A stretch of 64,000 nt of DNA, taken from positions 310,001-374,000 of the forward strand of contig CAWUHX010000097.1 in NCBI GenBank assembly GCA_963922205.1. Reading direction: 5' to 3'. This document shows, in pieces, positions 4,210-60,475 of the stretch. This stretch comes from Romanomermis culicivorax (lineage: Eukaryota; Nematoda; Enoplea; Mermithida; Mermithidae). The translations under genes and the position numbers were made by a program. The notes under the pieces were generated by a model. That model had not been told where the DNA came from. It made no database searches and saw only the letters and a program-made list of their open reading frames with translations. The number at the start of each line of letters is the position of its first letter. Position 1 is the first letter of the stretch.

Positions 4210-4214
4210 GCAAT

Positions 4215-38254: not shown

Positions 38255-39719
38255 TGTCACGTGCCGCTCAATCCTCCAACGTCACGTGATTCCGATCATG
38301 CCGGCATTTTGTTATTTTTCATGTTTTGTTTATTACCCGATCATGCTTTTGTTTATTTCATTTTTACACATGCATTTTACGTTCGTTTTTATATTTTTCA
38401 TGCATTTCTATGTTTCGTTTTGTTGTATTTTTATTTCTTTACAAACGCGGGCTACAGTAGGCCCTTTAGCTAAAAACTTCCGCCAGTCGTGCTCCACGAG
38501 CACATGGCTATTTTTGGTGCACTCACGCACCTCTTATCATCAAAATTAGCGTCGTTTTTGTTACGCAAAACGACTAGCTAAGAAGTTTTAGCTAAAGACG
38601 TTCATATGCTTAGCATAGGCACTGCAGCCGGCCTCAGTGCTAAACGCATGTGAATGAAAAAATGTCTATGTGCTCATAGGCATCTTCTGCATCGCGTCTA
38701 GCTGCAGAAGTTAGCTTGAGCGCCGAGAAACTCCGCCCAAGCTGCAGCTGTAGCCAAACATGTCCTTAAAAGGACATGTTTCTTTAGTTTTTCGCTCATT
38801 CTTGGGTTCACCAAGCTTTCGTCCAGTTGTCACTCCGCGTCCGCCGCCTCCTCGTCAAATTTGCATAATTTTATTATATACCTGTGCGTCCGCCGCCTTA
38901 TTATCAATAAATTTGCATAAATTTACTCGTGTTCACTGCGTCCGCCGCCTCACGTCTACAGTACCCCGCTGCCCATCAGTGCCAGGTGTCCGACCGCCCC
39001 GGTTCGTGAATTAACCGTTGGAGTTTCGCCTCCCGCTCGCTTCCGCTCCCTCCCGCTCGCTGCCGCTCGCCGCCGCTCGCCGCCTAGGACGTTTGAGGAT
39101 CGCATCCCCCGCTCCCAGTGCCAGAAGACCGAAAGCATCCAGGGACTTGCCGCCTGTCGCGTCGTAATCGCTTGAGAAACAGGACTAGGTGAGTCTTCTC
39201 AGGGGATTATTGTTGTTGTTTGTGGGTTATTTGTTGGGAAATCCTTCCTAAGTCGGTTTCCCAAGGTTTCCACAGATAAGTAGGGCCTCCACCTCTCAGG
39301 TACGGGCTAAAAGGGGCTGTCTGGTTCATAATCGGGTCCCATAATTTAGGTCATTTTACGGGTGACCCTGTCCCCACTCTCACGGAGTAGGACTCGGGGA
39401 TTGTCGCACCTAGCCTGGCAGCGTTGTCCATTACCCTACAGCAAGACCCCAAGGACAACCCAAGAGAACCAACTATAGACCTCTCTATAGCCACCAATTG
39501 CCAGGTTAGGCCCCAACGCCAACTTGGGAAGCCTGGGGAAAATGCCAGTATCCATCAGGAGTCACAGCCTATTACTCACTGTAATGGGATCAATCTGATA
39601 TGGTTCACCATCAATGTGACGTCTAAAACACGGTACTACCTGATGAGATACCCAAACCTCCCCAGCTCTCCCAAGACCAACATGTCATACACGTGACATG
39701 GATGGCGCAATATGTGACA
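38255..39719 (+). repeat. Solo LTR of element C family, with TAAC target-site duplication
   Basis: 1465 bp, TGTCAC at the left and GTGACA at the right (6-bp inverted ends), flanked by TAAC at 38251-38254 and 39720-39723. It matches 56377-57841 at a constant offset of 18122; the one difference I found is C at 39000 versus T at 57122. It contains an AATAAA at 38906, a run of CCGCTCGC units at 39028-39085, and a strong splice donor TAG/GTGAGT at 39189. No internal domain follows, so this is a solo LTR formed by LTR-LTR recombination, or one allele of the element C locus. Confidence 0.92.
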
Positions 39720-41920: not shown

Positions 41921-42048
41921 GATGATTTCGAAATGAAATTTTTTTGGGAAGTCAATTGGAATCAGATGAAAATTTCACATTTTTAATGATCTCGAAATGA
42001 AATTTTCTTGGGAAGTCAATTGGAATCAGATGAAAATTTCGTATGAAA
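41921..42048. repeat. 64-bp direct tandem duplication
   Basis: GAAATGAAATTTTTTTGGGA at 41930 recurs as GAAATGAAATTTTCTTGGGA at 41994, with the following AAGTCAATTGGAATCAGATG also repeated. Two units, few differences. Copied again at 60043-60170. Confidence 0.8.
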
Positions 42049-42353
42049 AAAAATTTTTTGAGCAAGAAACTGAGAAAAATTCAGATTTTTTTTGTAAAAA
42101 TCCGAAATTTGATTTCCATCAATTTGATATTCATTACCCATTTTAAAATTTCTTATTAAACAATGAGTGTAACCCAACGAAGCTTTAGACGTCGGAAACC
42201 GCATTCAACTTGTTTTTCGTACAAAGCATCGTATTTCTGTATCTAAAAAAATAATTTAAACTTTTAAAAAATATAAATAAATGGAATTTTTAATAAAAAA
42301 ATTTTTTAATACAAATGTTAGAATTTGAATGGCTTCTTCAGACAGCAATAACC

Positions 42354-43074
42354 CTGGTTCGTGAATTAACCGTTGGAGTTTCGCCTCCCGCTCGCTTCCG
42401 CTCCCTCCCGCTCGCTGCCGCTCGCCGCCGCTCGCCGCCTAGGACGTTTGAGGATCGCATCCCCCGCTCCCAGTGCCAGAAGACCGAAAGCATCCAGGGA
42501 CTTGCCGCCCGTCGCGTCGTAATCGCTTGAGAAACAGGACTAGGTGAGTCTTCTCAGGGGATTATTGTTGTTGTTTGTGGGTTATTTGTTGGGAAATCCT
42601 TCCTAAGTCGGTTTCCCAAGGTTTCCACAGATAAGTAGGGCCTCCACCTCTCAGGTTCGGGCTAAAAGGGGCTGTCTGGTTCATAATCGGGTCCCATAAT
42701 TTAGGTCATTTTACGGGTGACCCTGTCCCCACTCTCACGGAGTAGGACTCGGGGATTGTCGCACCTAGCCTGGCAGCGTTGTCCATTACCCTACAGCAAG
42801 ACCCCAAGGACAACCCAAGAGAACCAACTATAGACCTCTCTATAGCCACCAATTGCCAGGTTAGGCCCCAACGCCAACTTGGGAAGCCTGGGGAAAATGC
42901 CAGTATCCATCAGGAGTCACAGCCTATTACTCACTGTAATGGGATCAATCTGATATGGTTCACCATCAATGTGACGTCTAAAACACGGTACTACCTGATG
43001 AGATACCCAAACCTCCCCAGCTCTCCCAAGACCAACATGTCATACACGTGACATGGATGGCGCAATATGTGACA
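42354..43074 (+). repeat. Element C 5' LTR, missing its first 744 bp
   Basis: Matches 57121-57841 (offset 14767) and 38999-39719. Begins inside the LTR at CTGGTTCGTG directly after flank DNA ending AATAACC, with a CC microhomology at the join. Ends GTGACA at 43074. Contains the splice donor TAG/GTGAGT at 42544. As drawn, it lacks the U3 promoter region. Confidence 0.9.
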
Positions 43075-43092
43075 TGGCGAGGCTGGAAAATC
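43075..43092 (+). promoter_or_regulatory. Candidate primer-binding site of element C
   Basis: TGGCGAGGCTGGAAAATC begins immediately after the LTR's GTGACA. TGG would pair with a tRNA CCA end. This sequence is absent after the solo LTR, as expected if it belongs to the internal domain. tRNA identity not assigned. Confidence 0.6.
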
Positions 43093-43094
43093 GA

Positions 43095-43440
43095 TCTTAA
43101 GTCTGGCACTCGCCCTTAAGTGTAAAACTTTACCCTTGGGTCGGATCTACCCCCAGGTCGGGTCAACTCCCATTTTAAGTCGGACAAGCCCCCTTAAAAT
43201 TGGGCACTAGCCATCCAATAAGTCGGAAACCCCCCCAAATTCGGGTTTACTGCCTAATGGGTCGGGAATGCCCCTTATTTCGGATTACCGCTACTGTAGG
43301 TCGGATACCCCCACCTCACGTCGCGTGTTATTACTGTAGTCGGAAATTTTTTTCCCGTGCAACCGAGAGTTGTTACTGTAGGTCGGGAATTTATCCCTGA
43401 ACATCAAATTTAATTACTGTAAGACGGGATTTGCCCTTAC
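43095..43440 (+). repeat. ~20-bp GTCGG repeat array with TACTGTAG motifs
   Basis: About 14 degenerate units of the form TTAAGTCGGANNAGCCCCC follow the PBS; the last four contain TACTGTAG or TACTGTAA. More ACAGTA/TACTGTA sites follow to 43860. TACTGTA-rich repeats are common in nematode genomes. Function unknown. Confidence 0.6.
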
Positions 43441-44074
43441 AAGTGATCTAAATGTGATCTATATGTGTAAATAACTATCTCATGCGTGTGTATTATCCCC
43501 TATGAGTAATAAATTCCCCTCTGAGTCGAGTTATCTATCCCCAGAGTCGCGTTATTTGTCCCAGAGTTGAGTTATATATCGAGTATCTGTATTTCTCCTC
43601 TGATTATTTCTGTACATTCTGCCTACTTAAATCGGTGTTGTAAATTCCCTTATCTGTTCTCTTTCCATCATTCCCCCCCCCTTCCTCTAATCCTGGGTGG
43701 TATACTGTAGCCCTCCGGGTGGGTGCCATTACAGTACGCCTGTGCCCATTCCCGTACTGTAACTACAGTATACCCATACGCGGGTACTGGTATCACAGCT
43801 GTAGGGGTTTACGGCCTCTCCTGACTGTTGGTGGTCCGTGACCCCATGATACAGTACACCCTCCACGTATGATTCTGGACGTCATACGCGGCTGCGATTT
43901 GTTAATTGTGTACAGCATTTTTTTCTGTCGGCGGAAACTGTCGGAACTGCTCACTTTTCCGGCCCCAAAATTTACACAGACTGTTTACACATTTAACACG
44001 CGTATGCCCAAATCCCGTATTCCCCGTCTACGGCTATTTTCCTTTCCCTTTTCCTTTCTCGGTCATCTGAGCGG

Positions 44075-44078
<4 letters not shown>

Positions 44079-44119
<41 letters not shown>
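44079..44119 (+). repeat. 41-base poly(A) run
   Basis: An uninterrupted A run followed by five T. It lies in the untranslated leader of element C, not at a 3' end. May be true or an assembly length estimate. Confidence 0.85.
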
Positions 44120-44123
<4 letters not shown>

Positions 44124-44263
44124 TCTGTTTTTTGGACGCCACCGCTACAGTATGACACCCTTACATAAGTTTCTCTCTTCTTCATTTCTACTTACTGTAA
44201 GGTCTGTTTCTTCTACTTTCCGGTTGTTGCATCTAGACCATAGACTTTACGGGTCATGTTCTT

Positions 44264-45298
44264 TGACGTCAGCAACAACAACGTTACGGGTTGTTGTTGT
44301 TGTGTGGTTCAGCCTCACGGATGCAACCACTAACGTCTGCAACAGCCGCTTCACTTGCTGTTGCTTTAAGGGGTGGGTAGCCCTCCGGGTTCTACTCCTG
44401 ACGTCAGCAACCGACACTACGTGTTGTTGTTCAAGTTAACACTCCAGCAGTAATGACTTCTGACGTCTGCAACAGGTGAAGCCGATGTTGTTGCGACAGG
44501 TTCGGCTGGTTCTCTGCACCCCATCTGTGACGTCAGCAATGGTGACGCACCGTGTCACTATTCGAAGATGTGCAGGTCTTATGGATGCCACATCTGACGT
44601 CTGCAACAACTGCATCTCATGTCATTGACCAAAGGTACCAGACCCTCGGTTCCACCTTTTGACGTCAGCAACGGCACCATCACGTGTTGCTGTACACCGA
44701 TAGCTGGCTTCAGGGCCCTATTGCTGACATCAGCGATGACAACGTATCATGCCCTCGCAGCAGGAATTGAGGTTACATGATCCTATTTCTGACGTCTGCA
44801 ACGGTAACATTACGTGCTACCGCAGGGGTTTGCTGGCCTTAGGCACTCACCCCTGGCGTCTGCAACTGCGACGTGATACTTGAATACTCTTATCCCAGGC
44901 ACCTGCAGTCAGCATCAAGGTTATGTGTTGGTCCATACCCCCTACCTTCTGACGTCCGCACCAGGTTACTGTCGGCCCTATGAGTATTCCACTTGAGTTG
45001 TAGGTGGTTGCTGGCGCATGGTCCTATCACCTACCTCTCTTGTTCAAGGGTTTTGTGTGTGTCTGGGGGCTGATGCCTGGGAAACATCAGTCCACATACA
45101 TACACCACCTGAGATGCTCACTAGCCTACGTACTGATCAGGTTGTCCGCCCGGGTAGCGGCACTGTTGATCAGTATGTGGCTGTTTTCAAGCTTTAACTG
45201 CAGGTTTGAACGAGTTACACTCGGCCTCAGCTGGGTTGGTTGCTTGACTCGTGCAGACGATAGGCATTTGCAGTCGGTACTGCCTGTGTCTGACGTCT
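44264..45298 (+). promoter_or_regulatory. Array of CRE-like TGACGTCA / TGACGTCT sites at ~65-bp spacing
   Basis: Sites at 44264 (TGACGTCA), 44331 (TAACGTCT), 44399 (A), 44461 (T), 44528 (A), 44595 (T), 44660 (A), 44725 (TGACATCA), 44790 (T), 44854 (TGGCGTCT), 44950 (TGACGTCC) and 45291 (T). Each is followed by GCAAC or a near match, and many by an ACGTGTTGTTG-like phrase ~15 bp on. The first six alternate strictly between the TGACGTCA and the -GTCT form, so the original unit was a ~131-bp dimer. TGACGTCA is the CREB/ATF palindrome; binding here is inference. Confidence 0.75.
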
Positions 45299-46739
45299 GC
45301 AAGGGTTCGGCAATCTTCTTGTAAATTTCTTATCTAAATTCACTCTTTCTCTTTCATCTCATCGAGCTGTCATACATAGATCTTCTTTAGTGTCCCCGCC
45401 GTAGTGGTTCCCAAGGGACCGCGGCACAGCCTCCGGTTGGGCCTAGAGTGTATAGGACCCCCTGTCATATTTCTTTCACTCGAAGGCCTTCGTTAACTGG
45501 CTTAACGATGCCCGCACTAGAGTCGCCACTGACCCAGAGTCCGCCTCCGCGGTCTACCCTTTATTAGTCATGTAAATAATAGGCACCGTTGAGTCCGCCT
45601 CAGCGAAGGTATTGAGTACGCCTCGATACATACTTTACACTCATATTCAATCAGGGACACCTTGTACCCGTGATCCCTTAGATGTTTTCGGGTGCGCCCT
45701 CAAAACATCCAGAGATTTCATTCTAACTGACTGAGTGTGTCAGAATAGCACCCTTGGTACCCGTGCTCCTTCCCTCTTCTACTGTGTGACCTGCGAACCT
45801 CACTTCATCTCAGTGATCGGCAAACCCGGCCACCAGCTGTGTATAATACTCCTGGAGAGTGTCCGTTCTGTTCGGAATGCGGGCTCCCGTTCCGGACACG
45901 GCTGTAAGTTATTTGCGAATGTCGTCCAGCACGGAACCTCCTGTATAGTCCGTCTCACTATGCAGAGATCGCAATCGCTCCTGGCGAGCGAGGCCCGTTG
46001 CGTAACTGCGCGACCCCTTTGCGTAACTGGGTTTGTAAATTAGTTTTGTCCCTATTTATTGCTCCCTCTTAAGTTCATTTTCAGTTGACCCCATCCTTTC
46101 TACCTTATGCCACTTTATGCGCTACTCCTGGTGAGTAGGATCTTGCCGGCTACGAGTCCGCCTCGCCCCAAGGTTTGTAAACTAGTACAGCGGTCGAACC
46201 TCCAGGAAAAATCCCTCCTGAGCGGGTTTATCCGTCACCTTATTTCTCGGCAGGAAAAACCGCCTCTTCTCTCCTTTCTACATGATCTTCTGTCCTCTTC
46301 ACCTATTGTAATTGCCGGGTCCAGGCCCCAAATTCTACATTTTGGTCGGGATCGATTCCCCATATCTCAGGCCAAGCCTCTGTCCATCACGGGCGACCAG
46401 ATAAATTCCCTTCTGCGTCACCCTGATGTACTCTGACCTTACATCTTATAATCCTATTCCATTCTAGCTCCCTTTCCGTGGTCGCTAGTCTTAAGCTAAG
46501 TCAATTTACGTCTTAAACGCCGTCGCACACGCGTTTTCCCGAATTCACGCGCTCTTTCGCCGCGAATTCAAAAGTAGTACTCACTCTCATTTTACACAAT
46601 AGAGACACCCCGTCGTTCCTGCCGTCCCAGTACCCAGCCTGTACAGACCAGTGAGCCGCTCTCTATTCAATTTGACTTAATTGCTTCACGGGCAAGGACG
46701 TCTGTTCTAACCACCTTACGGGAAAACGAACCCTCGGAC
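45299..46739 (+). other. Element C leader, no gene
   Basis: Several short frames (e.g. 45735-46043, 46107-46436) but none with recognisable features. The leader upstream of Gag is unusually long, 3.7 kb from the LTR. It probably contains packaging, promoter or intron sequence, given the LTR splice donor. Confidence 0.4.
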
Positions 46740-49700
46740 ATGAAGTCGGAAACTGATCTCCCTTCACAGATCGAGAACAAGGTCCAGGCAGCATTTGAGA
46801 ATGCTCTTGGACCCCTCAACCAAAAGTTAGAGGCCATGAATGGTCGGAGGCACCCTCCCGTGTCCAGCTTTATGGCCCCTCCCACCTTCTCCGGTGCTTT
46901 TGGTGAGTCTATCACCGATTTTATGTCGCATCTTACTCGTTTCTTTACACTCCAGGGTGTAAGCGAAACGGATCATGCGTATAAAATCGCCTTTCTGGAG
47001 TCATGCCTCACGGGTCCTGCTCTCGCCTCCTACCGGGACTTTAGCAGCAGCACTCCAATACCTACCCGCTACGAAGAGTTTACGGCTTTTCTACGGAGAG
47101 ATTTTCCGGTAGGGCGCGACTCTGATCTGCATCAGCAGCTGATCCAAGATCGACTGCAGAAGCCAACAGAGTCCGCGATAGTCTACCTTGAGCACCTCAA
47201 GAGACTATCCAGGGTAGCGTATCCAGATCTCGCGACGGATGTCCGAGATTCTATCATCAAACCTATCTTCCTGCGGGGACTGAAGCCGGTCCTCCGAGAT
47301 AGTATCAAGTTTAGGGAGTTCACGACTCTTGAAGAGACACTCAAGGCAGCCTGTTACGCAGAATCCCAAATCTTTCGGGACGAGATCCGGTACACTGCTC
47401 CATCTAACGCCGTTTTCTCTTCAGAACCTAAACACGCCGGATATAATCCCGATATGCCTAACAGAAGCGCAAACGGTCGTCAGAGCAACGCTCCAACGTC
47501 GTCATCCTCCGCCGATGAGGTTCGCCGCTTGAAACAGGAAATGGCCAGGCTCACGGCCCACGTAGTGAAGCTCACGGCCCAGCAACGTGCACCCGCGCCA
47601 ATCCAATGGACGCCGCCTCCACAGCCGTCGACACCAAATCAGTCCGCCGGGCGACGCTCGTCGGGAGCACACCTCCAAACGTGCTCCTTCCACGGACTGT
47701 GTACACATAGCGACGCCGACTGCCGGGCCCAGCGTCCCACCGGTGCCGCCCCCGGTAACAACGCCGCTAACGGTGGTCGCTGTTATTTTTGCCGTACACG
47801 TGCCCACCCCACGGACCGATGTGATAGGCCATGCCCTCATTGTCGTCAAGTGCGAGTGCACCGATCAACTGCCTGTCCGCAGCGCAATCTGGCAAACACG
47901 GGTGAGAATGTCTACCAAGATACTGGTTATTCTTCCCAGGGGACAAATGTGTATCATCAAAGAAATGGTTATCACCCTCCCAACGGGACAGGAAACCATT
48001 ATCGGCAGCCCATACGCCGCAACAACGCCGTTGGGGCTACCGATGGCCCTCCTCACCCAGATCCTCTTGACCTGGATGATGAGGCACTTGCTGAACACCT
48101 GACAGATTCTTCACAACAGTGTTATCCTGTCTGCATAATCAGCATTGGATTTTCAGTGGTCCAAGCAGCCCAGGTACCCGTACCGATGAACGTATCGGAC
48201 ATACCGCTGCCACCACCACCACCAAAGTATGCGATGCCGGTCACTCTGGACCCCTCGACGACACCGCAGTTTGTTGGCCACGCTAACATCCTCGCATCGT
48301 ATCGCATACCTAAACTCAAGACTGCCGAGCCAACTCCAGCCGCAAATACGACGTCTTCGGCGCCACCGGCCCGCACCGTCCCTCCAGGACCACCGCCTTC
48401 GATCCCCACGGATTCGGCTACGGAAGTCCTCGACCAGGTCGAGCCCATGAATTTGTCAGGTATACTACCTTCTTCTTCAGGTGATCCTAGAGTAGGAACC
48501 AGAAATCTATCTCAGTCCACGACTCTATCGATTTCTTGTTCACAGCGCCATCGCCCGTCCAAGACGCGATGTTGGCCATCTGGTCAGTCGACCTGGCCAA
48601 GAAATACCCGCATTTGCCGTGGACTCTCCTCAACGAGCCATCAAATGTCGAAGCGCTCACGGCCGCCGACGTCGTGCTTGCAGCACCCGTCTCGATGCGC
48701 CTATTACGACCCGACGTCGCCCGCCGGGCACTCGAGTTCATTGCCAATGGAACTATCACCATCTCGCCCGTCGAGAAGTTCTTATTGGACGGGGAGCCAT
48801 CCTCGCCTTCAGTCGATGCCGTCCGCCGAGCAGTCGAACAGGCCAGTCGGATCCTCCTGCCTGCTGCCGCCGCTACATCACCGGCAGCAGCGCCACCTGT
48901 TGCCGCGACCTCGCCAACGAAAATGGACATTACTGCTTCCTCGCCACCGGCCAAGGAACCCGCAAATGATCCTACACCGCCGGCAACAGCCCAGACCAAA
49001 TCGCCGGCACCAGCCCAAACGACATCTCCGACCGACGCGACCAAGTCGCCCGTCGTCGAACCCATGGCCGTCGACGAGACCTTACGTCCAGTTAATGAGG
49101 ATGTCAGCATTGTTGAAAAATCACCATTCCCAACGGCAGTCAACCCATGGTCGCCGAAAGTCGGTACCCTTCGGGAAATCCTCCCCAGCGGTGAATTGGT
49201 CCTCGATCTCCCCGACCAGGAACCAATCTCGTCCGACAGCGACGAAGAAGAAATCTGACACTGCCCCTCAGGCCAGATTTGTGAAATTGAGTGAACACTT
49301 ACAAATTACGTTTGTACAGTTGTTTTTGACAATAAAATTGACCTTGGTAGCATCACTGTTTCTAGGGGTGAGTTTGTCAGCACCGGCGGCTCAGTATCAA
49401 TTTTGCGGTCTCTCAAGAAGCGGACATCCACTTGAGTTACCCCAGCGTGTAGAGTGTAAACCACCGCAATCTTCATGGAGCCCGCGGCGCATGAATGTTA
49501 CGGTGTATGTCCCTAGCTCAGACCCGATTACAACCACAGCGTGGAAATGCACATTGCGCTCCCGCAAAGTCTGCACCAACACTGGTTTCTTCGGCTCTAG
49601 GGGCATCACTGCAGACGTCATCACCACTCAGCACTTAGCGCCTGCGGCATGCACGCTAGCACATCGCACTAAAATGTTTGGTTCACAAAAACTTGTCGGC

Positions 49701-52700
49701 ATTCGCCCTGGCTTTTATAGCACCAACCAAACATTGGAAGTGATGTACGAATGGTGCTGCAGCGACGTCTGCAAGACAGTGACTAACCTCTTCATCGAGG
49801 AGGGACAAGTCGCTTCGTGGGACGGCACTACGGCCCTAAGCACCTTAGGCGATGTAGGTGGATGCAGTCCCACTGCGGGCCAGTGCACTACTCTAGACGG
49901 GGTCATTGTCTGGCCTGCACAAAAATTCACGGCGCGGTGTCATTATCACCCCAAGGGAAATTACACTGCGTCCATGTCAGGGAACCACGTCATCATCGAT
50001 GATCTACAGGTTGCCCTCAAGATCCCGGGAAACTCCCGTGTCTTCCAACTGTGCCCAGAACTACGTTCCACCACAGTCCGGACGGATCAGGGTCTTCTCC
50101 TTCGCATCCACGGGAGATACAATTTGACCCAAAACATGTTCAGAGTGGCAACGGACAGCCGTCCCGATCCTGTCAATGCCAAGCTGAACTATCTGGCTCA
50201 GCAGATCAAGGAGTCGGAAATTAACGGTTTCCGGTTCACGTGGCTTGAGCTTTGCTCTCACGCTCAACGCTATCTTGATCTGACTTGGCAGTTGCTTCGC
50301 TTCGACCCTACCCTGGGTGCCCGGGCATTCCTCCAGAGGAATGACCTGACGGCGGAATTCACAGGCGATGCGCTGACAATATGGCCGTGTCAGAAGGTCA
50401 ACGCCACCTACGTTTACCATTCGTACCGGGTGGGGAACGTTTGCTACAAGTACTTACCTGTACAGGTTGGCGGCACCATCTACTTCGCCACCCCCGGTGG
50501 TCCGGATCTCATTAAATCTAGCCCAATTGTGCCGTGTCATCACCACTTTACAGGGATTTTCCGAAATCGCTCGGGCTGGTTTACTGAGTCTGGCGCGGTC
50601 CATGTGAGCCACATCCCACTGGAACTCTTCTGGAAGCAGCGCTTCAACATCACTCACTTTGAGGCACCGGCGCTCTTCCATGACCAGTTGGCGATGACCC
50701 CTTCAAACTTTGCCTTCTTTAAACAGTACGTTTATAAGACTGAGCAAATTGAAGCGGTACTCAACCGGCTGGTGAACTTTACCGCTGGCCTATCCCTGCA
50801 ACCAGACGCCATCTACCAGGCCTTTGCAGGGGTAGGAACCGACATCAAGGCCTCTCTGGAAGGTGTCGGTTTGGCAGCAAACCATGTTATTACGGGTCAA
50901 GAACACACCCTCGCCCAGGGCTTGCACGCTGTCCTGAGCGGGCCGGTCCAGTTGATCTTTAACATCCTAATTACCCTGACAGTGCTGATCGGTGCCGGAT
51001 ACCTTGCCTATCTTGGTGTATCTTATTATCTCAGCTACCGTCTGCGGAGCAAACAGGTCAGGTTTGTTAGCCGTTTCTCCCCGTTGGGTCTTTACCGCAA
51101 AGTCCAACGCTGGATCGGTTTTCACTACGTGCAAAACGATGTACCCTCCCAGCTTGACCGAATCACACCGTGCTTTGTCGTGCTGCTGGACACCAAGGAA
51201 ACTCCTGCTTTCCTTGACACGGGTTGCCCACGCACTATCATTAGCCAACGCCTTCATAAGGCCTTGGCTAAAGAAAGTCCGAAGGCGGTCATGGCGTGCC
51301 AGCAACATCACGACTTTAACCCATTGATGAGCATCAATGGTAAAGCCGTTCATACCATCCTTTCGGGACCATATGAAATCATGTTGCCCGGAAACCGCCA
51401 GCCGAACACACGGATCGATGTACATCTCCATGTGTGCAAGACTACGTCTCCCTTCTGGGCACCTGTTGACCTCATACTCGGACTGGACTTCTTAGAACAG
51501 TTCAAGAACATTATGTTTGACTATCAACGTAATGTCTGTCGGCTGGACGTGGTAGAATTACCCCTCCTGCTGACCACGCCGGAGATTGACCAGATCGACC
51601 CCTGGTGGGAGAACACCCGTGCTCTCTCGCGAAACTCACACAGGTCGGGATCACGATCGCGGTCCAGGGCTTCGTCCATCTCTCGGCCACACTCACGGGC
51701 CTCCTCAGTTGCCTCATCACGTGGGTCAACTAGGGGATCCCGGGCCTCTTCTAGACGGGCAAGTCGTCATCTGTCGACCTTGCACGGGTCAGGTTACCCT
51801 CGACCTCCGCCTGGAACCTCTCCAGTTACGCTAGAGAAAGGCCGATACCGTGAGCCAAGTGATTCAGATGCTCCGACATCACCCGTGCCAAACGCACCTC
51901 CGCTATCGGACACCGAGGTTGAATCACTAGGAGCTACTCAGAGTCCGAAGGATCACTCAGACCACATACTAACGGTACAGGATGAGTCCACCCTTCTGAA
52001 TGACCCGGAACCCTCCGTCGGATACGCTCTAGTAGGCCTCCTACGTCGTACGGGACTGCCGATTCCAAAGCGGTCCGGTAAGACCAAACATGTTAGTGGT
52101 GCCACCACACGTGATTCCGGTCATGTGGTCACGGCTTTTTACCCAAATGATATTCGGACACCCCATATCAAAGTTCTCCTCAACAACTGGGTAGAAACGA
52201 AGGCACTGGTCGACACAGGAGCTGTTTTCTCACTCTTGGACCACAAGTTAGCGGCCCAGCTGCCCAACTTGTCACTATCACCAACCAGGGCACGCCCTAT
52301 CGCAGCCAACGGGTCCCCGATCCCACTGCTAGGAGCAGCCTACATAACAGTTACAGTGGCTGATGTCTCTGAACGGATTCAGGTCCAAATACAGGAGAAC
52401 TGTTCAGCTGAGCTGGTCCTCGGAACCAATTTCCTCGGCCGGTTCAATTGTGTCAGTTTGAACTGGGAGAAATCTTTCCTCCAGTTCAAAGAAAGTAGAA
52501 TCCCCTGTGACGGTCTCATCCACAGCCCACCTTCTGCCCGCGGCGCTTTGCCCCTGAAGGACTTGGTGATTCTAGAGCCTCGCTCCATGACACGATTCAC
52601 TGTACCTGTCCCACCAATCTATACGAACGTGCCTGAGGTGGCCTTCTTTCCGAAGAACCTCACCGGGTCTCAACGACACGTATATTTTGCAGGAAGCGTC

Positions 52701-54539
52701 AGTACCGTGACCAACGGTCACATACCGCTTCAGGTAGTCAACCCAAGTACTCATTCCGTGGTTCTCTACCCGCACACGACCATCGGTCATGTGCAAATGC
52801 ATAGTGAGCCCTCACATGAATCACCGGTCGACTCAGACACCGTCCTCGATCGTCAGTGGGTCGAGGCCAATGCTGTGATCTCACCGGACATCTCCCCTCG
52901 GGACCGGGCAGCCTTACTCGATCTACTGGTTGCATACACCGACCTTTATGCTCTTGATGAAAAGGACACAGGTTCCACTGATCTCGTCCAGCACGAAATC
53001 AGCACGGGTGATGCCCGCCCAGTCCGCCGTTTTCCTTACCGGTCCTCACCTAAGGAAAAGGATCTCATCATGCAGGAGGTCAAGGCGCTCCAGGAGAAAG
53101 GTATTATTCGGCCCAGCACGTCTCCGTGGGCTACTAATACTGTCCTGGTGCGCAAGAAAAACGGTTCTCACCGTATGTGTGTTGACTTTCGTGGTCTTAA
53201 CGAGGTCACGAAAAAGGATGTCTACCCTCTCCCGCGGATAGATGACATCCTCGACACACTCAAGGGTATGAAGTATTTCACTACCCTTGACCAGGCTAAC
53301 GCTTATTGGTCAATCCCGATTGCCGAGGCCGATAAGGAAAAGACGGCTTTTAATACGCCTATTGGACTTTACGAATTCAATTATTTGCCTTTCGGTTTAT
53401 GCAACGCGCCAGGGACATTTCAACGCCTTATGGACCTCCTCCTCACTGGAATCCAATGGCGCACGGTTCTGACTTATCTCGACGACATTTTGGTGTTCGG
53501 GAACTCTCACACCCAAATGCTTGAGCGCCTGGCAGATGTGTTCGCCCGTCTTCGCCAGGGTGGAATGAAGCTCAGACTGAGCAAGTGCAAATTTTCGCAC
53601 TCAGAGGTAGAGTACCTAGGCTATCGCATCTCACAGAGCGGCCTAGAACCTGACCAAGCCAAGCTGGCCGCCGTCCAAAACCTACCCATTTCACAAAACG
53701 CCAAAGACATCAAGTCCTTCCTAGGCCTCGTGTCTTACTACAGGCGTTTCATCCCTGGTTGTGCCCGGCTCAGCGAGCCACTCACCAAGCTCTTACGGAA
53801 GGAAACTACTTTCCAGTGGTCAAAACCTCAGCAGGAGGCGTTCGATGAACTCCGCCGCCTGCTGACCAACCCTCCTATCCTGCGCCATCCGGACTTTTCG
53901 AAATCCTTTATCCTTCAAACTGATGCGAGTATTTCGGGGATAGGAGCGGTTCTTAGCCAGTTAGACGAAAATGGATACGACCATCCTGTTGCGTACGCCA
54001 GCCGAGGGTTAACAGCGGCCGAGAAAAACTACTCCATTACAGAACTGGAGACTCTCGCTGTTGTCCATTTCGTCAAGCACTTTCGACCATACCTCTTCCA
54101 GCACGAGGTGGTCGTTCAGACTGACCATACCGCGGTCAAAGCAGTGTTGGAGAAGCCTAACCCCTCTGCTCGGATCGCTCGTTGGGGACTCGCGCTCGCC
54201 GAATTCAAACTGACAATTCGGCCGCGAAAAGGTCAGTCTAATGGTAATGCTGACGCATTATCACGCCTGCCGGATCCTAACTCCCTCACCGGTCAGAGTA
54301 TTGATGATACTCCCCTCTACAGACCTGAGGGGCACGTTATGATGATCACCGATGGTGCGCAGCACCTGGCGAGATCAAGGACCTTGACCGATGGTGTGCA
54401 GCACCTGGCGCGTTCAAGTAATTCAGCACCGATCACTGTTGGCGCGGAGCGCCCGGTACGATCAGAGTCTTATGCCGAGATATCCGTCGGTGCGCAGCAC
54501 CCCGACCTTTTCGCTGCTCAGCTGGAGGATCCGGAATGA
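46740..54539 (+). CDS. Element C ORF1: Gag, envelope-like glycoprotein, two retropepsins, RT, RNase H
   Basis: One frame of 2599 codons from the ATG at 46740. Approximate residues: capsid 45-235; [14 protein letters not shown] knuckle near 314; two CCHC knuckles 347-380; Pro-rich and low-complexity 440-845; signal-like hydrophobic 861-884; Cys-rich ectodomain 886-1400; membrane segment 1405-1432; retropepsin 1 (LDTGCPRT, Asp 1493; LILGLDF, Gly 1581); RS-rich 1629-1684; retropepsin 2 (LVDTGAVFS, Asp 1825; LVLGTNFLG); RT with [11 protein letters not shown] and YLDD 2246-2249; RNase [12 protein letters not shown] to GNADALSR. A fourfold [14 protein letters not shown] repeat precedes the stop. 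Env between Gag and Pol is unusual, since metavirid env genes normally follow pol. No stops or catalytic losses are seen in RT. Confidence 0.92.
48491..49258 (+). CDS. Overlapping -1-frame ORF inside element C ORF1
   Basis: Opens after a TAG at 48488-48490 and ends at TGA 49256-49258, in the -1 frame relative to ORF1. Its product has ordinary protein character: a helical start ([34 protein letters not shown]), a Pro/Ala/Thr-rich middle and an acidic SSDSDEEEI end. The ORF1 frame over the same bases is Arg/Pro/Ser-rich, like a shadow. So the natural Gag tail may be in this frame, reached by -1 frameshift or splicing, while the ORF1 frame stays open by chance or by dual coding. It has no ATG until ~48566; TTG starts are unlikely in a eukaryote. 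An acceptor-like CTTCTTCTTCAG ends at 48480. Confidence 0.55.
49275..51060 (+). other. Envelope-like glycoprotein domain of element C
   Basis: Domain of ORF1, residues ~846-1440. A hydrophobic signal-like stretch ends near APAAQ, followed by ~500 residues rich in Cys with about nine N-glycosylation sequons (NVT, NQT, NYT, NLT, NAT, NRS, NIT, NFT among them). Near the end a Gly/Ala-rich amphipathic region ([19 protein letters not shown]) leads to a ~26-residue membrane segment and a short basic tail. This is the layout of a class I or III viral fusion glycoprotein. I cannot assign the class. A chuvirus- or herpes gB-like origin is a guess only. No furin RXXR cleavage site stands out. Confidence 0.7.
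51150..51580 (+). other. First retropepsin-like domain of element C
   Basis: [10 protein letters not shown] (Asp codon 51216-51218), a [10 protein letters not shown] strand, and [11 protein letters not shown] near 51471 give the DTG and the C-terminal ILG signature of retroviral-type aspartic proteases. It lies just after the membrane segment and before the RS-rich linker (51624-51790). A second complete set follows at 52175-52500. Confidence 0.75.
52170..52500 (+). other. Second retropepsin-like domain of element C
   Basis: [12 protein letters not shown] (Asp codon 52212-52214), [12 protein letters not shown], and [11 protein letters not shown] near 52410. This is the usual position for pol protease, ~600 bases before RT. 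Both domains keep the catalytic Asp. Confidence 0.8.
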
Positions 54540-55856
54540 GCCGACATCATTCGCTCTCTTAAGCCTCTGGGCGACCAGAATGATGTGCGAGGCTACCATC
54601 TGTTGGACAACGTCCTTCAGAAATGGACAGGCGAGTCCAATAAGATCGTCATACCCAGATCCATGGTTACTACCATTATCTGGGCTCATCACGATGACAT
54701 CTTAGCTGGACATTTCGGTGCTAAACGTACTGCGCGGCTCATTGCTCGCAGATACCACTGGCCCTCCCTCAGTCGGGATGTCAAGTCCTTCTGTCAGCGG
54801 TGTGATCTTTGCCAACGGAATAAGCCCGCTCGACAGAAATCCACTGCGACCCTGAAACCTATCACCATCACGGGACCGTTTCACCGGGTAGGTGTCGACT
54901 GCATGGGACCAATGACCACTAGCGAAGCTGGCAACCGTTTCATCGTAGTCTTTATCGACTACTTTACGAAATGGGTCGAGGCTTTTGCTACTCCGGACAT
55001 CACTGCGAACACCATAGCCCGACTGTTTGTAACGCAAATTGTCTGCCGGCACGGGGCACCGCAGATTCTTCAGTCAGATCGTGGCACTGATTTCACATCA
55101 AAACTGATGACTGAAATCACTGCGATCTGCGCAACGAAGAAAATCCACTCTACCGCCTATCACCCGATGACCAACGGCGAAGTGGAAAGAGCTAATCAGA
55201 CGCTAGCCACACGGCTACGTATGTATGTCCATCAAGGACATACTGATTGGGATGAACACCTACCATACGCTGTGTTTGCCGTCAATATCAGCATGAACGA
55301 GTCAACAGGGTACTCGCCCTTTGAACTCATGTACGGTCGCACACCCATGCTCCCTGTTGACGCCGCGCTCTCATTCAACCCTCCGGCCCATATCATTAAT
55401 GTTTCCTCATATGATATGGAGGTCAAACGTCATTTCACGAATGCGTTAACCTTAATCCAGAGTCGGATTGAGAAAGCACAGGAAGCCTATGCGCGGTCGT
55501 ACGACCGAAGGGCACATGATGTCTCGTACAAAGTCGGGGATCAGGTGCTCAAACTGCGCACCTCCAGCAAACGTGGACTCACTCCTAAATTGCTGCCCAT
55601 CTACGATGGACCCTACCTTGTAACGAATGTGGCATATCCCAATGTCACACTTCGTCTCGAGATGGATCAGGAAGACACGGTACATGTCAACCAGCTTCGA
55701 CTTTACGTGTCCCCTGAACAACCGAGTGAAGCAGAGGATACACCTCCCACTTCACAGGCAACAGATTCGGCACCCTTATTGTATCCCTCAATAAGCCGGG
55801 ACTTCACACCGAATCTGATTGACCCACATCTTGATGCAGAGGTCCCCGACCCGTAA
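54540..55856 (+). CDS. Element C integrase, separated from RT by one in-frame TGA
   Basis: Same frame as ORF1; the TGA at 54537-54539 is the only interruption, and sequence from 54540 is coding-like up to the first downstream start near 54585 (a 423-codon frame). Zinc domain: HHDDILAGHFG and CQRCDLCQ. DDE core: GVDCMGPM near 54892, LQSDRGTDF near 55070, HPMTNGEVERANQTL near 55164. LMYGRTPMLPVD follows, then a GPY-type module (DGPYLVTNV) near 55600, and an acidic tail to TAA-like stop at 55854. The TGA could be a recent mutation or a readthrough site; there is no ATG directly after it. Confidence 0.9.
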   Translation, partial: ADIIRSLKPLGDQNDVRGYHLLDNVLQKWTGESNKIVIPRSMVTTIIWAHHDDILAGHFGAKRTARLIARRYHWPSLSRDVKSFCQRCDLCQRNKPARQKSTATLKPITITGPFHRVGVDCMGPMTTSEAGNRFIVVFIDYFTKWVEAFATPDITANTIARLFVTQIVCRHGAPQILQSDRGTDFTSKLMTEITAICATKKIHSTAYHPMTNGEVERANQTLATRLRMYVHQGHTDWDEHLPYAVFAVNISMNESTGYSPFELMYGRTPMLPVDAALSFNPPAHIINVSSYDMEVKRHFTNALTLIQSRIEKAQEAYARSYDRRAHDVSYKVGDQVLKLRTSSKRGLTPKLLPIYDGPYLVTNVAYPNVTLRLEMDQEDTVHVNQLRLYVSPEQPSEAEDTPPTSQATDSAPLLYPSISRDFTPNLIDPHLDAEVPDP

Positions 55857-56376: not shown

Positions 56377-57841
56377 TGTCACGTGCCGCTCAATCCTCCA
56401 ACGTCACGTGATTCCGATCATGCCGGCATTTTGTTATTTTTCATGTTTTGTTTATTACCCGATCATGCTTTTGTTTATTTCATTTTTACACATGCATTTT
56501 ACGTTCGTTTTTATATTTTTCATGCATTTCTATGTTTCGTTTTGTTGTATTTTTATTTCTTTACAAACGCGGGCTACAGTAGGCCCTTTAGCTAAAAACT
56601 TCCGCCAGTCGTGCTCCACGAGCACATGGCTATTTTTGGTGCACTCACGCACCTCTTATCATCAAAATTAGCGTCGTTTTTGTTACGCAAAACGACTAGC
56701 TAAGAAGTTTTAGCTAAAGACGTTCATATGCTTAGCATAGGCACTGCAGCCGGCCTCAGTGCTAAACGCATGTGAATGAAAAAATGTCTATGTGCTCATA
56801 GGCATCTTCTGCATCGCGTCTAGCTGCAGAAGTTAGCTTGAGCGCCGAGAAACTCCGCCCAAGCTGCAGCTGTAGCCAAACATGTCCTTAAAAGGACATG
56901 TTTCTTTAGTTTTTCGCTCATTCTTGGGTTCACCAAGCTTTCGTCCAGTTGTCACTCCGCGTCCGCCGCCTCCTCGTCAAATTTGCATAATTTTATTATA
57001 TACCTGTGCGTCCGCCGCCTTATTATCAATAAATTTGCATAAATTTACTCGTGTTCACTGCGTCCGCCGCCTCACGTCTACAGTACCCCGCTGCCCATCA
57101 GTGCCAGGTGTCCGACCGCCCTGGTTCGTGAATTAACCGTTGGAGTTTCGCCTCCCGCTCGCTTCCGCTCCCTCCCGCTCGCTGCCGCTCGCCGCCGCTC
57201 GCCGCCTAGGACGTTTGAGGATCGCATCCCCCGCTCCCAGTGCCAGAAGACCGAAAGCATCCAGGGACTTGCCGCCTGTCGCGTCGTAATCGCTTGAGAA
57301 ACAGGACTAGGTGAGTCTTCTCAGGGGATTATTGTTGTTGTTTGTGGGTTATTTGTTGGGAAATCCTTCCTAAGTCGGTTTCCCAAGGTTTCCACAGATA
57401 AGTAGGGCCTCCACCTCTCAGGTACGGGCTAAAAGGGGCTGTCTGGTTCATAATCGGGTCCCATAATTTAGGTCATTTTACGGGTGACCCTGTCCCCACT
57501 CTCACGGAGTAGGACTCGGGGATTGTCGCACCTAGCCTGGCAGCGTTGTCCATTACCCTACAGCAAGACCCCAAGGACAACCCAAGAGAACCAACTATAG
57601 ACCTCTCTATAGCCACCAATTGCCAGGTTAGGCCCCAACGCCAACTTGGGAAGCCTGGGGAAAATGCCAGTATCCATCAGGAGTCACAGCCTATTACTCA
57701 CTGTAATGGGATCAATCTGATATGGTTCACCATCAATGTGACGTCTAAAACACGGTACTACCTGATGAGATACCCAAACCTCCCCAGCTCTCCCAAGACC
57801 AACATGTCATACACGTGACATGGATGGCGCAATATGTGACA
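56377..57841 (+). repeat. Element C 3' LTR
   Basis: 1465 bp, TGTCAC...GTGACA, followed by TAAC at 57842-57845. Same features as the solo LTR: AATAAA at ~57028, CCGCTCGC run, donor TAG/GTGAGT at 57311. The left neighbour is element C's internal 3' region, so it is a true 3' LTR. Confidence 0.93.
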
Positions 57842-60475
57842 TAACAAAGCAGCAGTAATATAATTTAAATGTCCGAAAATTAGTGTGAACGTGCAACCAG
57901 TTTCATTTGTTTGATAAAAAAACGTGTTCATTAAAATGTGCTTTAAAACACTGCATTTTATTTGATTAAACATGTAAATTTATAGCAATGAAAACGTTAT
58001 TGTTCAACATCACATGCAATATGGCAAAAACAACTCATTCTCGATTTTGAGTCTGCCAAAGGATAAGGAATAATTTATGGAGCAATTGATCATATCTATC
58101 TGGGACATCCAGAAATAGTTCAAAAGCATAGGCAAATCGCGTAAGTTGTTAATCAAATTATTGTATTGACTGCCAATTTGACAGGACGAATATACCAACG
58201 TCGCTTATCTTGGCGACGTTTTTGTGTGAGCCATCATAAAGTGCCGAATAAATTTCCTTCATCTTCGAAAAATTCATTGAAATTAATGTCCATCCCTAAA
58301 AAACGTTTCAACCATTGAGAAGTTGAATTTAAGAGAATGTGACAATAAAAATTGTTCACAGTATTTGTGAAAAAAGAGTAAAAATATTCATAAATAGCCG
58401 ATTTTTCACATATTTTCGATCAAAACTTTGAAATTTAAATCACATTATGATTAATTTTCAATGAAAAAATGACTAAATTTTCGACTAAAAAACTAATAGA
58501 TATTTCACATCTTTCCGATCAAAAAATCAAAATTTTGATCAATTTTCCATGAGAAATTACTAAATTTCCGACTTTGATAAAAAAACCCAGTAAATTTTCA
58601 CATTTATCCCCAACAATTTAAAATTCAAATCTGATTTTGATCAAATTCCATTAAAAAACATTAATAAATTTTGGTTTTTGATTAAAAAACATAAAATTTT
58701 TCACATTTTTTGCTCAAACATTCAGAATTTAAATTGGATTCTGATTAATTTTCCATAAAAAACGATAGATTTTCACCTTCCAAAAAAATCAAAATGTTAT
58801 TCAGATTTCTATAAGCAAATGATCAATTTTCAGCTTGGATCAAAACAACCAGTAAATTGTTTGCTCAATTTTATCCAAAAATTTCCTGAAATCCGGATTT
58901 TCGCCAGATTTTGGCGAATTTTGACAAGAAAATGACGAGTTTTTACGGTTTTTCGATTTGAAAGTTAAATTTCTGAAAAAAATTATTTGAAATTTTAGTT
59001 GTTGTCGATTTTCCTGAAATATATGTCTAGAAAATAGCCATTTTTCCATCCAAAATTTAAAAAAATATATTAAAATTTTAGAACTTTCGCCTTTTTTTCC
59101 TTACAAAAAAAGCGGAAGTCGAACAAATTTTCACTAGCAAAAAGTGAAATTTTCGTGGAACTAATTCCGAATTTTAAGCTCACCAACTTTACGTCGAATT
59201 TGTTTTAAAGTTAAGAATTGATTAATGGTTGGTTCAACCCATAAACCGGCTTCGATGGCCTTCAAGGCTTTACAAAATCTTTTCTCATATAAGCCATCAC
59301 CAAATCGAAAATATAATCACGTTTTCCGACGTTGTCATCATATTTTTGCAGTAAATCTGAAAAAAAATTATGCTATTCTAAATGATTCCGATTCTGAAAT
59401 TCGTATTTTGAATAGTCGGAAATTATTCTTCTATTTTAGACAATTTTTTAATTGATTCTAAAAAATTCAAATAATTTGATATTCATGAAATTTCCACAAT
59501 TTAAACATTTTCCAAATTTGATTCAGACTTGCTTTTGGATCATACATGTAACGGAGCCCCGAGGTCTGGGGGGAGGGGTTGGGCCACTTTTTTTGGGCCG
59601 GGGGTCAGCAATTCCCAAAATTTTGGGGGGAGGAGTCTCTGAAGAAAAAAAATCGATTTTTTCACGAAAAAATTCCGAAAAACATTTCAAAAAATAGTAA
59701 TTTTTGTCTAAAATATGATACAAAATGTATATATATATATATATATATGGTGCGAAACGCCGAGAAAATTGACGTTTTTTTGTTCAAAAACTGACATTTT
59801 TCATCAAAAAAATTGACATTTTTCCGACCAAAAGTATGGGGGTCCCTAGGGCTACCCTATGGCTAACCATAGGATTGGAAAATCCTGTGGTGGTCGCCCA
59901 AGGGCTAGCCATATGGTTGACGATTTCTGGGGGGGTTCCCATATCACTTCCCCCCCAAATTACATGTATGTTTTGGATAGATAAATGTATGAACTTTAAA
60001 AAAAATTTGGTTTTATCATCAGAATTGAAATTTTGCATTTTTGATGATTTCGAAATGAAATTTTTTTGGGAAGTCAATTGGAATCAGATGAAAATTTCAC
60101 ATTTTTAATGATCTCGAAATGAAATTTTCTTGGGAAGTCAATTGGAATCAGATGAAAATTTCGTATGAAAAAAAATTTTTTGAGCAAGAAACTGAGAAAA
60201 ATTCAGATTTTTTTTGTAAAAATCCGAAATTTGATTTCCATCAATTTGATATTCATTACCCATTTTAAAATTTCTTATTAAACAATGAGTGTAACCCAAC
60301 GAAGCTTTAGACGTCGGAAACCGCATTCAACTTGTTTTTCGTACAAAGCATCGTATTTCTGTATCTAAAAAAATAATTTAAACTTTTAAAAAATATAAAT
60401 AAATGGAATTTTTAATAAAAAAATTTTTTAATACAAATGTTAGAATTTGAATGGCTTCTTCAGACAGCAATAACC
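57842..60475. repeat. 2.6-kb flanking DNA, second copy
   Basis: Duplicate of 39720-42353 at offset 18122 without any indel I could find. After 60475 the sequence continues into unique DNA (TCTGCCATTTCC), so this is the copy attached to the natural right flank. No gene is seen in it. Confidence 0.9.
59541..59970. mobile_element. Second copy of the CATACATGTAA transposon (by duplication)
   Basis: Identical layout to 41419-41848 including both TTTTGGAT TSDs (59533-59540, 59971-59978). It is part of the duplicated flank, not an independent insertion. Confidence 0.85.

What the first reader, a model, noticed from the sequence alone, without database searches (positions are those of the whole stretch)
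46740..54539. Envelope-like glycoprotein fused between Gag and Pol in one 2599-codon frame
ORF1 of element C goes capsid, zinc knuckles, signal-like hydrophobic segment, Cys-rich glycosylated ectodomain, membrane anchor, then protease, RT, RNase H. In known Metaviridae and retroviruses env is 3' of pol. An internal env would put Pol in the cytoplasmic tail of a membrane protein, or requires processing, splicing or internal initiation. The element is young and the frame is open throughout, so the order is not an old scar.
Basis: partly seen in the sequence, partly recalled or inferred. Interest (0 to 1): 0.92.

Follow-up and report, generated by a model that had tools for sequence, protein, structure and literature searches.

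The report
Retroelement with envelope before polymerase
A recently active, multi-copy retroelement in an unidentified genome carries a virus-type membrane-fusion protein between its capsid and its copying enzymes, in the same reading frame as both, an order we did not find in the papers searched.

Summary
Confirmed, with corrections. Window 46740-54539 is an open 2599-codon frame in a Ty3/Gypsy element. Order: capsid, zinc knuckles, signal-like segment, Cys-rich glycosylated ectodomain, membrane anchor, two retropepsin-like domains, RT, RNase H. The ectodomain core matches Pfam Monjiviricetes_fusion (E 3.5e-14). Not a one-off: 150 loci with this Gag were scored in the 359-Mb genome and 77 keep a frame of 3042 aa or more, long enough to include integrase; all 40 loci fetched carry the envelope segment. 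The window copy has a private in-frame stop before integrase. In 40 copies the env frame is under purifying selection (shared changes 86 silent, 30 replacement, 0 stop; expected 35/77/4). Correction: between capsid and envelope (48491-49258) the conserved protein lies in the -1 frame; the long frame is open there but its residues are unconstrained. Env and Pol share one uninterrupted frame; a DTG motif lies about 60 residues after the anchor, in a weakly supported protease domain. How Env is expressed (polyprotein or spliced RNA) is unresolved. Structure prediction failed, no other eukaryotic genome was searched, the host is unknown.

The parts
42352..43074 (+). 5' LTR of this copy, truncated to its last ~723 bp
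   Evidence: 99.72% to 57119-57842; boundaries read
43075..46739 (+). Long leader; PBS-like TGGCGAGG right after the LTR; contains short ORF 46107-46130 followed by the best-scoring 5' splice-site match of the internal region
   Evidence: ATG and donor present in 9 of 9 sequences compared, 1 of the 9 with a 1-base insertion in the short ORF; function not shown
46908..47354 (+). Gag capsid (Ty3_capsid)
   Evidence: Pfam PF19259 E 1.5e-7
47781..47876 (+). Two zinc knuckles
   Evidence: read, placed; no Pfam hit
48491..49258 (+). Overprinted region: conserved 255-aa frame (-1 relative to ORF1) with acidic C-terminus; ORF1 frame open but unconstrained in amino acids
49299..49388 (+). Signal-peptide-like hydrophobic segment (internal to ORF1)
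   Evidence: hydropathy 2.08; no signal-peptide predictor available
49389..50927 (+). Envelope-like ectodomain, 16 Cys and 8 sequons between the two hydrophobic segments
50172..50606 (+). Core matching Monjiviricetes_fusion (profile 311-450 of 653)
   Evidence: Pfam PF24664 E 3.5e-14, 2.9e-15 for the core alone; present in 5 of 5 other copies scanned
50928..51026 (+). Membrane anchor
   Evidence: hydropathy 2.14
51162..51575 (+). Retropepsin-like domain 1 (LDTG ... LILGLDFL), DTG about 60 residues after the anchor
   Evidence: 21% identity to domain 2, E 3e-4 for the single comparison; weak Pfam 0.0051, below cut-off; weak DDI1 match 0.0081; profile comparison weak, probability 8%; DTG kept in 38 of 41 sequences
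52170..52442 (+). Retropepsin domain 2 (LVDTG ... LVLGTNFL)
   Evidence: Pfam PF13975 E 1.2e-11
53148..53630 (+). Reverse transcriptase (YLDD at 53475-53486)
   Evidence: Pfam RVT_1 9e-36; Ty3 RT best solved relative, 3.1e-90
53892..54206 (+). RNase H (single domain)
   Evidence: Pfam PF17917 5e-37
54537..54539 (+). In-frame stop before integrase in this copy
   Evidence: no other of the 150 rows has this frame length
54540..55853 (+). Integrase with GPY motif, same frame
   Evidence: Pfam Integrase_H2C2 8e-22, rve 1e-8; motif placed
56377..57841 (+). 3' LTR, 1465 bp, TGTCAC...GTGACA, followed by TAAC
38255..39719 (+). Upstream full LTR between TAAC repeats, part of a duplicated LTR-plus-flank segment

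Best explanation
It is a Ty3/Gypsy LTR element (LTR, Gag, Pol and integrase shown) that captured a viral fusion glycoprotein of the chuvirus/bornavirus kind (shown by profile; class III fold not shown) and keeps it between Gag and Pol (shown in many copies). Env and Pol are one uninterrupted frame with no stop between them (shown). Most likely working (inferred): the unspliced RNA is read in one frame as Gag - spacer - Env - PR - PR - RT - RNase H - IN. The internal hydrophobic segment directs the ectodomain into the ER and is cut by signal peptidase, freeing Gag upstream, as in flavivirus and alphavirus polyproteins (recalled comparison). The anchor leaves the Pol part in the cytosol, and a retropepsin-like domain behind it cuts Pol from the Env tail. 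The region between zinc knuckles and Env doubles as a gene in the -1 frame; its protein is conserved, and the ORF1 frame there is only a spacer. How the -1 frame is reached (internal start at 48569, short splice 48460-48545, or other) is open.
For: Domain order and match. Ty3 assignment. Family-wide: 77 of 150 scored rows (of 3157 candidates) have frames of 3042 aa or more (tallied). Selection on env: changes shared by 2 to 39 of 40 copies, 86 silent, 30 replacement, 0 stop against 34.9/77.2/4.0 expected; 14 of 16 ectodomain Cys invariant and each of 8 sequons kept in 40-41 of 41 sequences. No env stop among 162 env singletons of 20 copies not chosen for an open env (5.5 expected). -1 frame conserved: 68 silent, 58 replacement, 0 stop against 38.3/84.6/3.1 for shared changes. 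ORF1 frame open across the overlap: 1.6% by chance given the -1 protein (synonymous shuffles). Recent activity: LTR pairs with 0-1 differences in 5 of 8 copies, 4-bp target repeats in 3 of 8.
Against: For the polyprotein step: in the overlap the ORF1 frame shows no amino-acid constraint (ratio 1.66), shared ORF1 stops are 3 against 6.1 expected, only weakly depleted (two of the three are CpG sites seen in copies that differ by the 24-bp insertion), and 21 of 73 shorter frames end in the overlap, about 9% of the length; of the 20 of these that were fetched, 11 are closed by a substitution, 9 of them with the -1 frame intact. For the -1 frame: no slippery heptamer in register; in those 9 copies its singletons show no constraint (ratio 1.23), and 3 singleton stops occur in it overall (3.4 expected). 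No structure: pLDDT 35.7 and 32.7. The first retropepsin domain is weakly supported, lost its DTG in 3 of 41 sequences, and 3 of the 20 copies have a stop in or near it. Single genome, no independent lineage.
Confidence: 0.55

Rival explanations
1. Spliced Env-Pol: a subgenomic RNA joins a short leader exon to an acceptor just before the signal segment, giving Env-Pol (one chain) without Gag; Gag itself ends in the -1 frame protein after removal of a short intron.
For: The best of 757 GT donor scores is 46130, right after an 8-codon ORF with ATG at 46107. An AG at 49271 is in phase with Env, and a putative intron 48460-48545 would join the ORF1 frame to the -1 frame in phase (read). Its GT is kept in 39 of 39 sequences that cover it and its AG in all 41. 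Codon-position bias changes from the ORF1 to the -1 frame near 48546, on few changes (12 in 48491-48545). Precedent: Drosophila errantiviruses splice env from a short exon upstream of gag (passage of PMC12992720).
Against: Acceptor 49272 ranks 74th of 650 and donor 48459 56th of 757; the top acceptor, 48481, fits neither junction, while 48546 ranks 14th (recalled weight matrices). The putative intron is no more variable than its neighbours in 41 sequences (0.186 against 0.209 and 0.349 downstream), although it looked so in 9 (8 of 86 against 38 of 859 and 10 of 275). No transcript data.
Confidence: 0.33
2. The segment is a one-off insertion or assembly chimera in this copy.
For: This copy does have a rearranged 5' end: truncated LTR and a duplicated LTR-plus-flank.
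Against: 40 of 40 fetched loci elsewhere in the genome carry it at the same place; 77 of 150 rows have the full frame; selection keeps it open.
Confidence: 0.01
3. The membrane segment is a host-derived or non-fusogenic surface protein that only resembles viral glycoproteins.
For: Only about 140 of 597 residues match the profile; the N-terminal 287 residues and the last 157 have no match; no structure.
Against: E 2.9e-15 for the core with a curated viral family, two further viral fusion families weakly on the same residues, collinear length (287 residues before the match against 310 in the profile).
Confidence: 0.06
4. A fossil order kept only by hitchhiking: env is no longer used.
For: About half of the scored rows have shorter frames (73 of 150).
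Against: Silent-to-replacement pattern in env (ratio 0.16 for shared changes) is as strict as in the neighbouring tail-protease segment (0.22).
Confidence: 0.05

Closest known systems
Errantivirus / insect endogenous retroviruses (gypsy, ZAM; Metaviridae)
   Same: Ty3/Gypsy Gag and Pol with a captured viral fusion glycoprotein; Env made from a spliced RNA (passages of PMC12992720)
   Different: Their env is a third ORF (3' of pol: recalled) of the baculovirus F type; here it is 5' of pol, in frame with it, and of chuvirus/bornavirus type
Anakin (BEL/Pao element of mosquitoes with a chuvirus glycoprotein)
   Same: Glycoprotein of the same viral kind captured by an LTR element (passages of PMC7642597)
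   Different: BEL/Pao, not Ty3/Gypsy. The passages seen put the envelope-like protein of Roo, Tas and Cer-7 downstream of the polyprotein and did not state Anakin's own order. A later paper of the group reports no clear capture by Gypsy or Copia (passage of PMC10084718)
MDG1-group Drosophila elements with sORF2 (passages of PMC11952523)
   Same: Ty3/Gypsy-type elements with a fusogen-like membrane protein that is not after pol: sORF2 lies upstream of gag in most cases
   Different: sORF2 is 63-107 aa, FAST-like, not a captured glycoprotein, a separate ORF, and not between gag and pol
Lokiretroviruses
   Same: Env related to Mononegavirales fusion proteins (passage of PMC9040795)
   Different: Dual RNase H, vertebrate hosts, separate env gene; here one RNase H and Ty3-type RT
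Bdelloid TelKA elements
   Same: LTR elements with a fusion protein captured from negative-strand RNA viruses (passages of PMC5408684)
   Different: Paramyxovirus-type F in ORF3 downstream of pol
Flavivirus/alphavirus structural polyproteins (recalled)
   Same: Cytosolic capsid, internal signal, ectodomain, anchor; in flaviviruses then enzymes, in one chain
   Different: RNA viruses without reverse transcription; analogy of working only

Membership tests
Ty3/Gypsy (Metaviridae) element | Ty3-type RT closer to Ty3 than to retroviruses | tested here: met
   Ty3 RT 3.1e-90; 'Enzymatic polyprotein' 8r0s 1.2e-59; 7kse (A9 protease-RT) 1.6e-37; 8wus Gag-Pol 9.7e-31; HIV RTs about 1e-10 to 1e-12. No tree was built
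Ty3/Gypsy (Metaviridae) element | LTRs with TG...CA ends and 4-6 bp target repeat | tested here: met
   TGTCAC...GTGACA; TAAC at the upstream LTR of the window; 4-bp repeats in 3 of 8 other copies, none seen in the other 5
Ty3/Gypsy (Metaviridae) element | Domain order PR-RT-RH-IN, GPY motif in integrase | tested here: met
Ty3/Gypsy (Metaviridae) element | Ty3-type capsid | tested here: met
   PF19259 1.5e-7, 31.5 bits against 29.1; no PDB capsid found by sequence
Errantivirus | env 3' of pol, baculovirus F type | tested here: not met
   env lies before pol and matches PF24664
Monjiviricetes-type (class III) fusion glycoprotein | Match to the curated profile | tested here: met
   52-56 bits against a cut-off of 27
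Monjiviricetes-type (class III) fusion glycoprotein | Match over the whole profile | tested here: not met
   profile about 311-452 of 653 only; N-terminal 287 aa and last 157 aa give none
Monjiviricetes-type (class III) fusion glycoprotein | Signal peptide, ectodomain with even number of Cys, C-terminal anchor | tested here: met
   hydropathy, 16 Cys; no dedicated predictor
Monjiviricetes-type (class III) fusion glycoprotein | Class III fold | tested here: inconclusive
   AlphaFold2 without relatives, pLDDT 35.7
Monjiviricetes-type (class III) fusion glycoprotein | Membrane fusion | not testable with these tools
   needs experiment
Retrovirus (Retroviridae) | Second RNase H with tether, env 3' of pol | tested here: not met
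   one RNase H found; env internal
Retropepsin (domain 1) | Profile match above cut-off | tested here: not met
   best 0.0051, 17.8 bits against 28.2; DTG kept in 38 of 41 sequences

The most novel reading that the evidence does not exclude
A retroelement lineage with a new genome plan, gag - overprinted gene - env - pol in one frame: Pol is made as the cytoplasmic tail of its own envelope protein, so that the enzymes are carried to the budding membrane by Env rather than by Gag, with a protease behind the anchor to release them, and with an overlapping gene in a stretch where the long frame's residues are unconstrained.
Probability: 0.35. Interest if true: 0.93.

Novelty: new variant of a known kind. 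Interest (0 to 1): 0.82.

Why it matters
In the passages seen where the place of a captured glycoprotein gene is stated, it comes after pol (PMC7642597, PMC5408684). An element that has multiplied recently with env before pol and in frame with it would show that this order is not required. It makes testable how enzymes can be incorporated into particles, gives an apparent capture of a chuvirus/bornavirus-type glycoprotein by a Gypsy element (the one survey seen reports no clear case), and offers an overlapping gene whose frame usage can be followed across many young copies.

Tried and rejected
One-off insertion, assembly chimera and fossil order were tested and rejected. Programmed -1 shift at a canonical slippery heptamer: none in register in 48480-49257. 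Stop-codon readthrough before integrase: dropped as a family trait, because 77 of 150 rows have no stop there; the RNA fold after the stop is unremarkable (z -1.2). Short intron 48460-48545 as the frame switch: phase fits, variability gives no support (the apparent excess in 9 sequences, vanished in 41). Structure prediction of the ectodomain and of the first protease with 3 window homologues failed, so no fold search was run. Searches elsewhere found no relative: viral contigs with env, RT-RNase H, integrase and the 153-aa core, genome contigs (prokaryotes) with env; with single proteins these reach close relatives only. Nine ORFs of at least 250 aa of elements A and B gave no envelope match. 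PDB search with env: weak hits only, bacterial adhesins at 0.02-0.17 and herpesvirus gB at 0.17, none with the core. The host was not identified (no Rfam hit).

Literature: 9 searches. Phrases for env between gag and pol gave 0 papers or 1 (a Sirevirus database, seen as listing only). Seen as passages: PMC12440569 (also abstract), PMC7642597, PMC10084718, PMC11952523, PMC12992720, PMC9040795, PMC5408684, PMC8672886. Most subscription papers are not held, so absence from print is not shown.

In one search the column of f0 stops for minus-strand copies is an offset artefact and was not used; gaps at the fragment ends there are artefacts too. The first 20 fetched copies were chosen among the 77 rows with long frames, so absence of ORF1 stops in them is by choice; the second 20 are 20 of the 21 rows whose frame ends in or just after the overlap. 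L032 and L035 lack the first ~100 bp of the piece. L041 has 7 gap bases between env and the first protease. The eight LTR pairs come from 8 of the 45 rows with frame 3092. One search was a failed script, repeated. The splice weight matrices are recalled approximations. Changes were classed in the window's codon background; changes found in all 40 copies were left out of 'shared'. Labels of PDB entries as virus groups are recalled.
Full report
What was claimed. One open frame of 2599 codons in element C with an envelope-like segment between Gag and Pol. The frame exists as stated. Read in pieces, Pfam gives, in order, a Ty3-type capsid (1.5e-7), a viral fusion glycoprotein (PF24664, 3.5e-14), a retropepsin (1.2e-11), reverse transcriptase (9e-36) and RNase H (5e-37). 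Two zinc knuckles lie at 47781-47876. Two membrane-type segments, aa 854-883 and 1397-1429, enclose 16 cysteines and 8 glycosylation sequons. Integrase follows in the same frame after a TGA.

What the element is. LTRs of 1465 bp begin TGTCAC and end GTGACA. The window copy has a truncated 5' LTR (42352-43074) and a full 3' LTR (56377-57841); an LTR plus 2.6 kb of right flank is repeated upstream (38255-42353 against 56377-60475, 99.98%). That is either a real duplication or an assembly effect, and does not touch the coding part. RT is nearest to Ty3 among solved structures (3.1e-90; the best retroviral-type entry, an A9 protease-RT, 1.6e-37), with a single RNase H and a GPY-type integrase. It is a Ty3/Gypsy element; no tree was built.

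What the inserted domain is. The core 50172-50630 alone matches Monjiviricetes_fusion at 2.9e-15, Borna disease virus G at 2.5e-4 and herpesvirus glycoprotein B at 0.12 on overlapping residues, the last two below their curated cut-offs. Its position in the profile (from 311 of 653) fits the 287 residues before it. The N-terminal 287 and the last 157 residues have no match of their own. A PDB search gave gB at 0.17 among weak hits to bacterial adhesins, and nothing with the core alone. AlphaFold2 on the single sequence failed (pLDDT 35.7). The assignment therefore rests on profiles and topology.

Other copies. The whole-genome tool answered once. With the first 200 Gag residues it scored 150 of 3157 candidates in the 359-Mb genome, all 99-100% identical over those residues. 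Of the 150 rows (the window's own among them), 77 have a stop-to-stop frame of 3042 aa or more (45 of 3092, 23 of 3100, 2 of 3116, 7 others), 13 end before the overlap described below, 21 in or just after it and 39 later (tally). A frame of 3092 equals that of the window plus stop codon and integrase; only the window's row has 2653. In 40 further loci the bridge-env-protease piece was fetched: all 40 align to the window over env (20 at 94-99%, 20 at 93-99%, by aligned piece), and 5 of the 40 were scanned with Pfam, all 5 matching. In 8 of the 45 copies with frame 3092 the LTR regions were fetched: both LTRs are complete in all 8; LTR pairs differ by 0-1 positions in 5 of 8 and by 3-4% in 3 of 8; 4-bp target repeats are seen in 3 of 8. 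Those without may be recombinants. The family has been active recently in this form.

Selection. Changes against the window among 40 copies were classed in each frame. Env, changes shared by 2 to 39 copies (116): 86 silent, 30 replacement, 0 stop against 34.9, 77.2, 4.0 expected; ratio 0.16. Tail plus first protease (38): ratio 0.22. The other two frames show ratios above 1 there. Half of the copies were chosen for open frames, so absence of stops in those cannot count. In the other 20, chosen only for a frame that ends upstream, 162 env singletons include no stop (5.5 expected); 17 of these 20 have no stop from env to the first protease, one of the 17 with 7 gap bases. Of 16 ectodomain cysteines 14 are invariant in 41 sequences, and each sequon is kept in 40 or 41.

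The overprinted region. From 48491 to 49258 codon usage favours the -1 frame (24.4 against -51.6 bits for the ORF1 frame). Shared changes agree: in the -1 frame 68 silent, 58 replacement, 0 stop (38.3, 84.6, 3.1 expected); in the ORF1 frame 27, 96, 3 (38.2, 81.7, 6.1). So a protein of about 255 aa with an acidic end is conserved in the -1 frame (no Pfam match), and the ORF1 frame is open but free in its residues. Insertions there in open copies are 24 or 72 bp, in-frame for both. Is the ORF1 frame kept open here by selection? Given the -1 protein, synonymous shuffles leave it open in 1.6%. Against this, shared ORF1 stops are only weakly depleted, 21 of 73 shorter frames end in this 9% of the length, and in 9 copies the ORF1 frame is closed by substitution while the -1 frame is intact. 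In those 9 copies the -1 frame's own singletons show no constraint (ratio 1.23) and env singletons are more numerous per copy (88 in 9 copies against 89 in 20), which fits older, decaying copies. I judge the case for a needed open ORF1 frame suggestive, not decisive.

How it may work. There is no stop between Env and Pol in the 77 long frames, so Env and Pol are one chain unless unseen RNA processing separates them. The anchor puts the part behind it on the cytosolic side if the first segment is a cleaved signal (inference). A DTG motif lies at aa 1493-1495, about 60 residues after the anchor, in a domain that resembles the second, clear retropepsin (21% identity, 3e-4), but alone it stays below Pfam cut-offs and the profile comparison is weak. 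I favour a Gag-spacer-Env-Pol polyprotein (about 0.55), with a spliced Env-Pol RNA as main rival (about 0.33). The rival has a fitting donor: the top-scoring one of 757, after an 8-codon ORF upstream of gag, a layout known from Drosophila ZAM (passage of PMC12992720). But the acceptor before env ranks 74th of 650, the top acceptor (48481) fits neither junction, and the putative short intron in front of the -1 frame shows no excess of change in 41 sequences.

Comparison. Chuvirus glycoproteins are known in BEL/Pao elements (Anakin, passages of PMC7642597); a later survey reports no clear capture by Gypsy or Copia (passage of PMC10084718). LTR elements with captured fusion proteins are known (errantiviruses, passages of PMC12992720; TelKA in rotifers, downstream of pol, passages of PMC5408684). 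A small fusogen-like membrane ORF upstream of gag is known in MDG1-group elements (passages of PMC11952523), so fusogens before pol as such are not unheard of. Nine literature searches in open PubMed Central papers gave none with a captured env between gag and pol; most subscription papers are not held. I therefore call it a new variant of a known kind: Ty3/Gypsy by the features tested, not an errantivirus, with a glycoprotein that passes the profile test but whose fold and function are untested.

Limits. One genome, host unknown, no transcripts, no relatives from other hosts, no structure. The first protease domain and the signal peptide are called on motifs and hydropathy.

Noticed in passing
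window 38255-42353 and 56377-60475: 4.1-kb segment (LTR plus right flank) repeated at 99.98% on both sides of the element, with a junction inside the 5' LTR: tandem duplication, recombination or assembly effect.
   Followed up: partly
window 48491-49258 (+), -1 frame of ORF1: Conserved overlapping frame of ~255 aa with Ala/Pro-rich middle and acidic end, no Pfam match, under purifying selection among shared changes of 40 copies.
   Followed up: partly
window 51162-51575 and 52137-52484: Two retropepsin-like domains in one frame, separated by an Arg/Ser-rich linker; the first is weakly supported.
   Followed up: partly
window 18248-31727 (-) and 3594-17153 (+): Two other, decayed Gypsy-type elements flanked by LTR-like repeats (90.7% and 79%); both have ORFs 3' of integrase without significant Pfam match; in element A a Cys/His-rich stretch and a weak protease match (0.001, below cut-off) share one 293-aa ORF.
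   Followed up: partly
window 37047-37628: About 117 copies of an ATTAC pentamer.
   Followed up: no
window 44079-44119: Run of 41 A inside the element's leader.
   Followed up: no
L049/L050, L059/L060, L061/L062: Full-frame copies whose two LTRs differ by 3-4% and lack a target repeat, as if recombined between copies.
   Followed up: no
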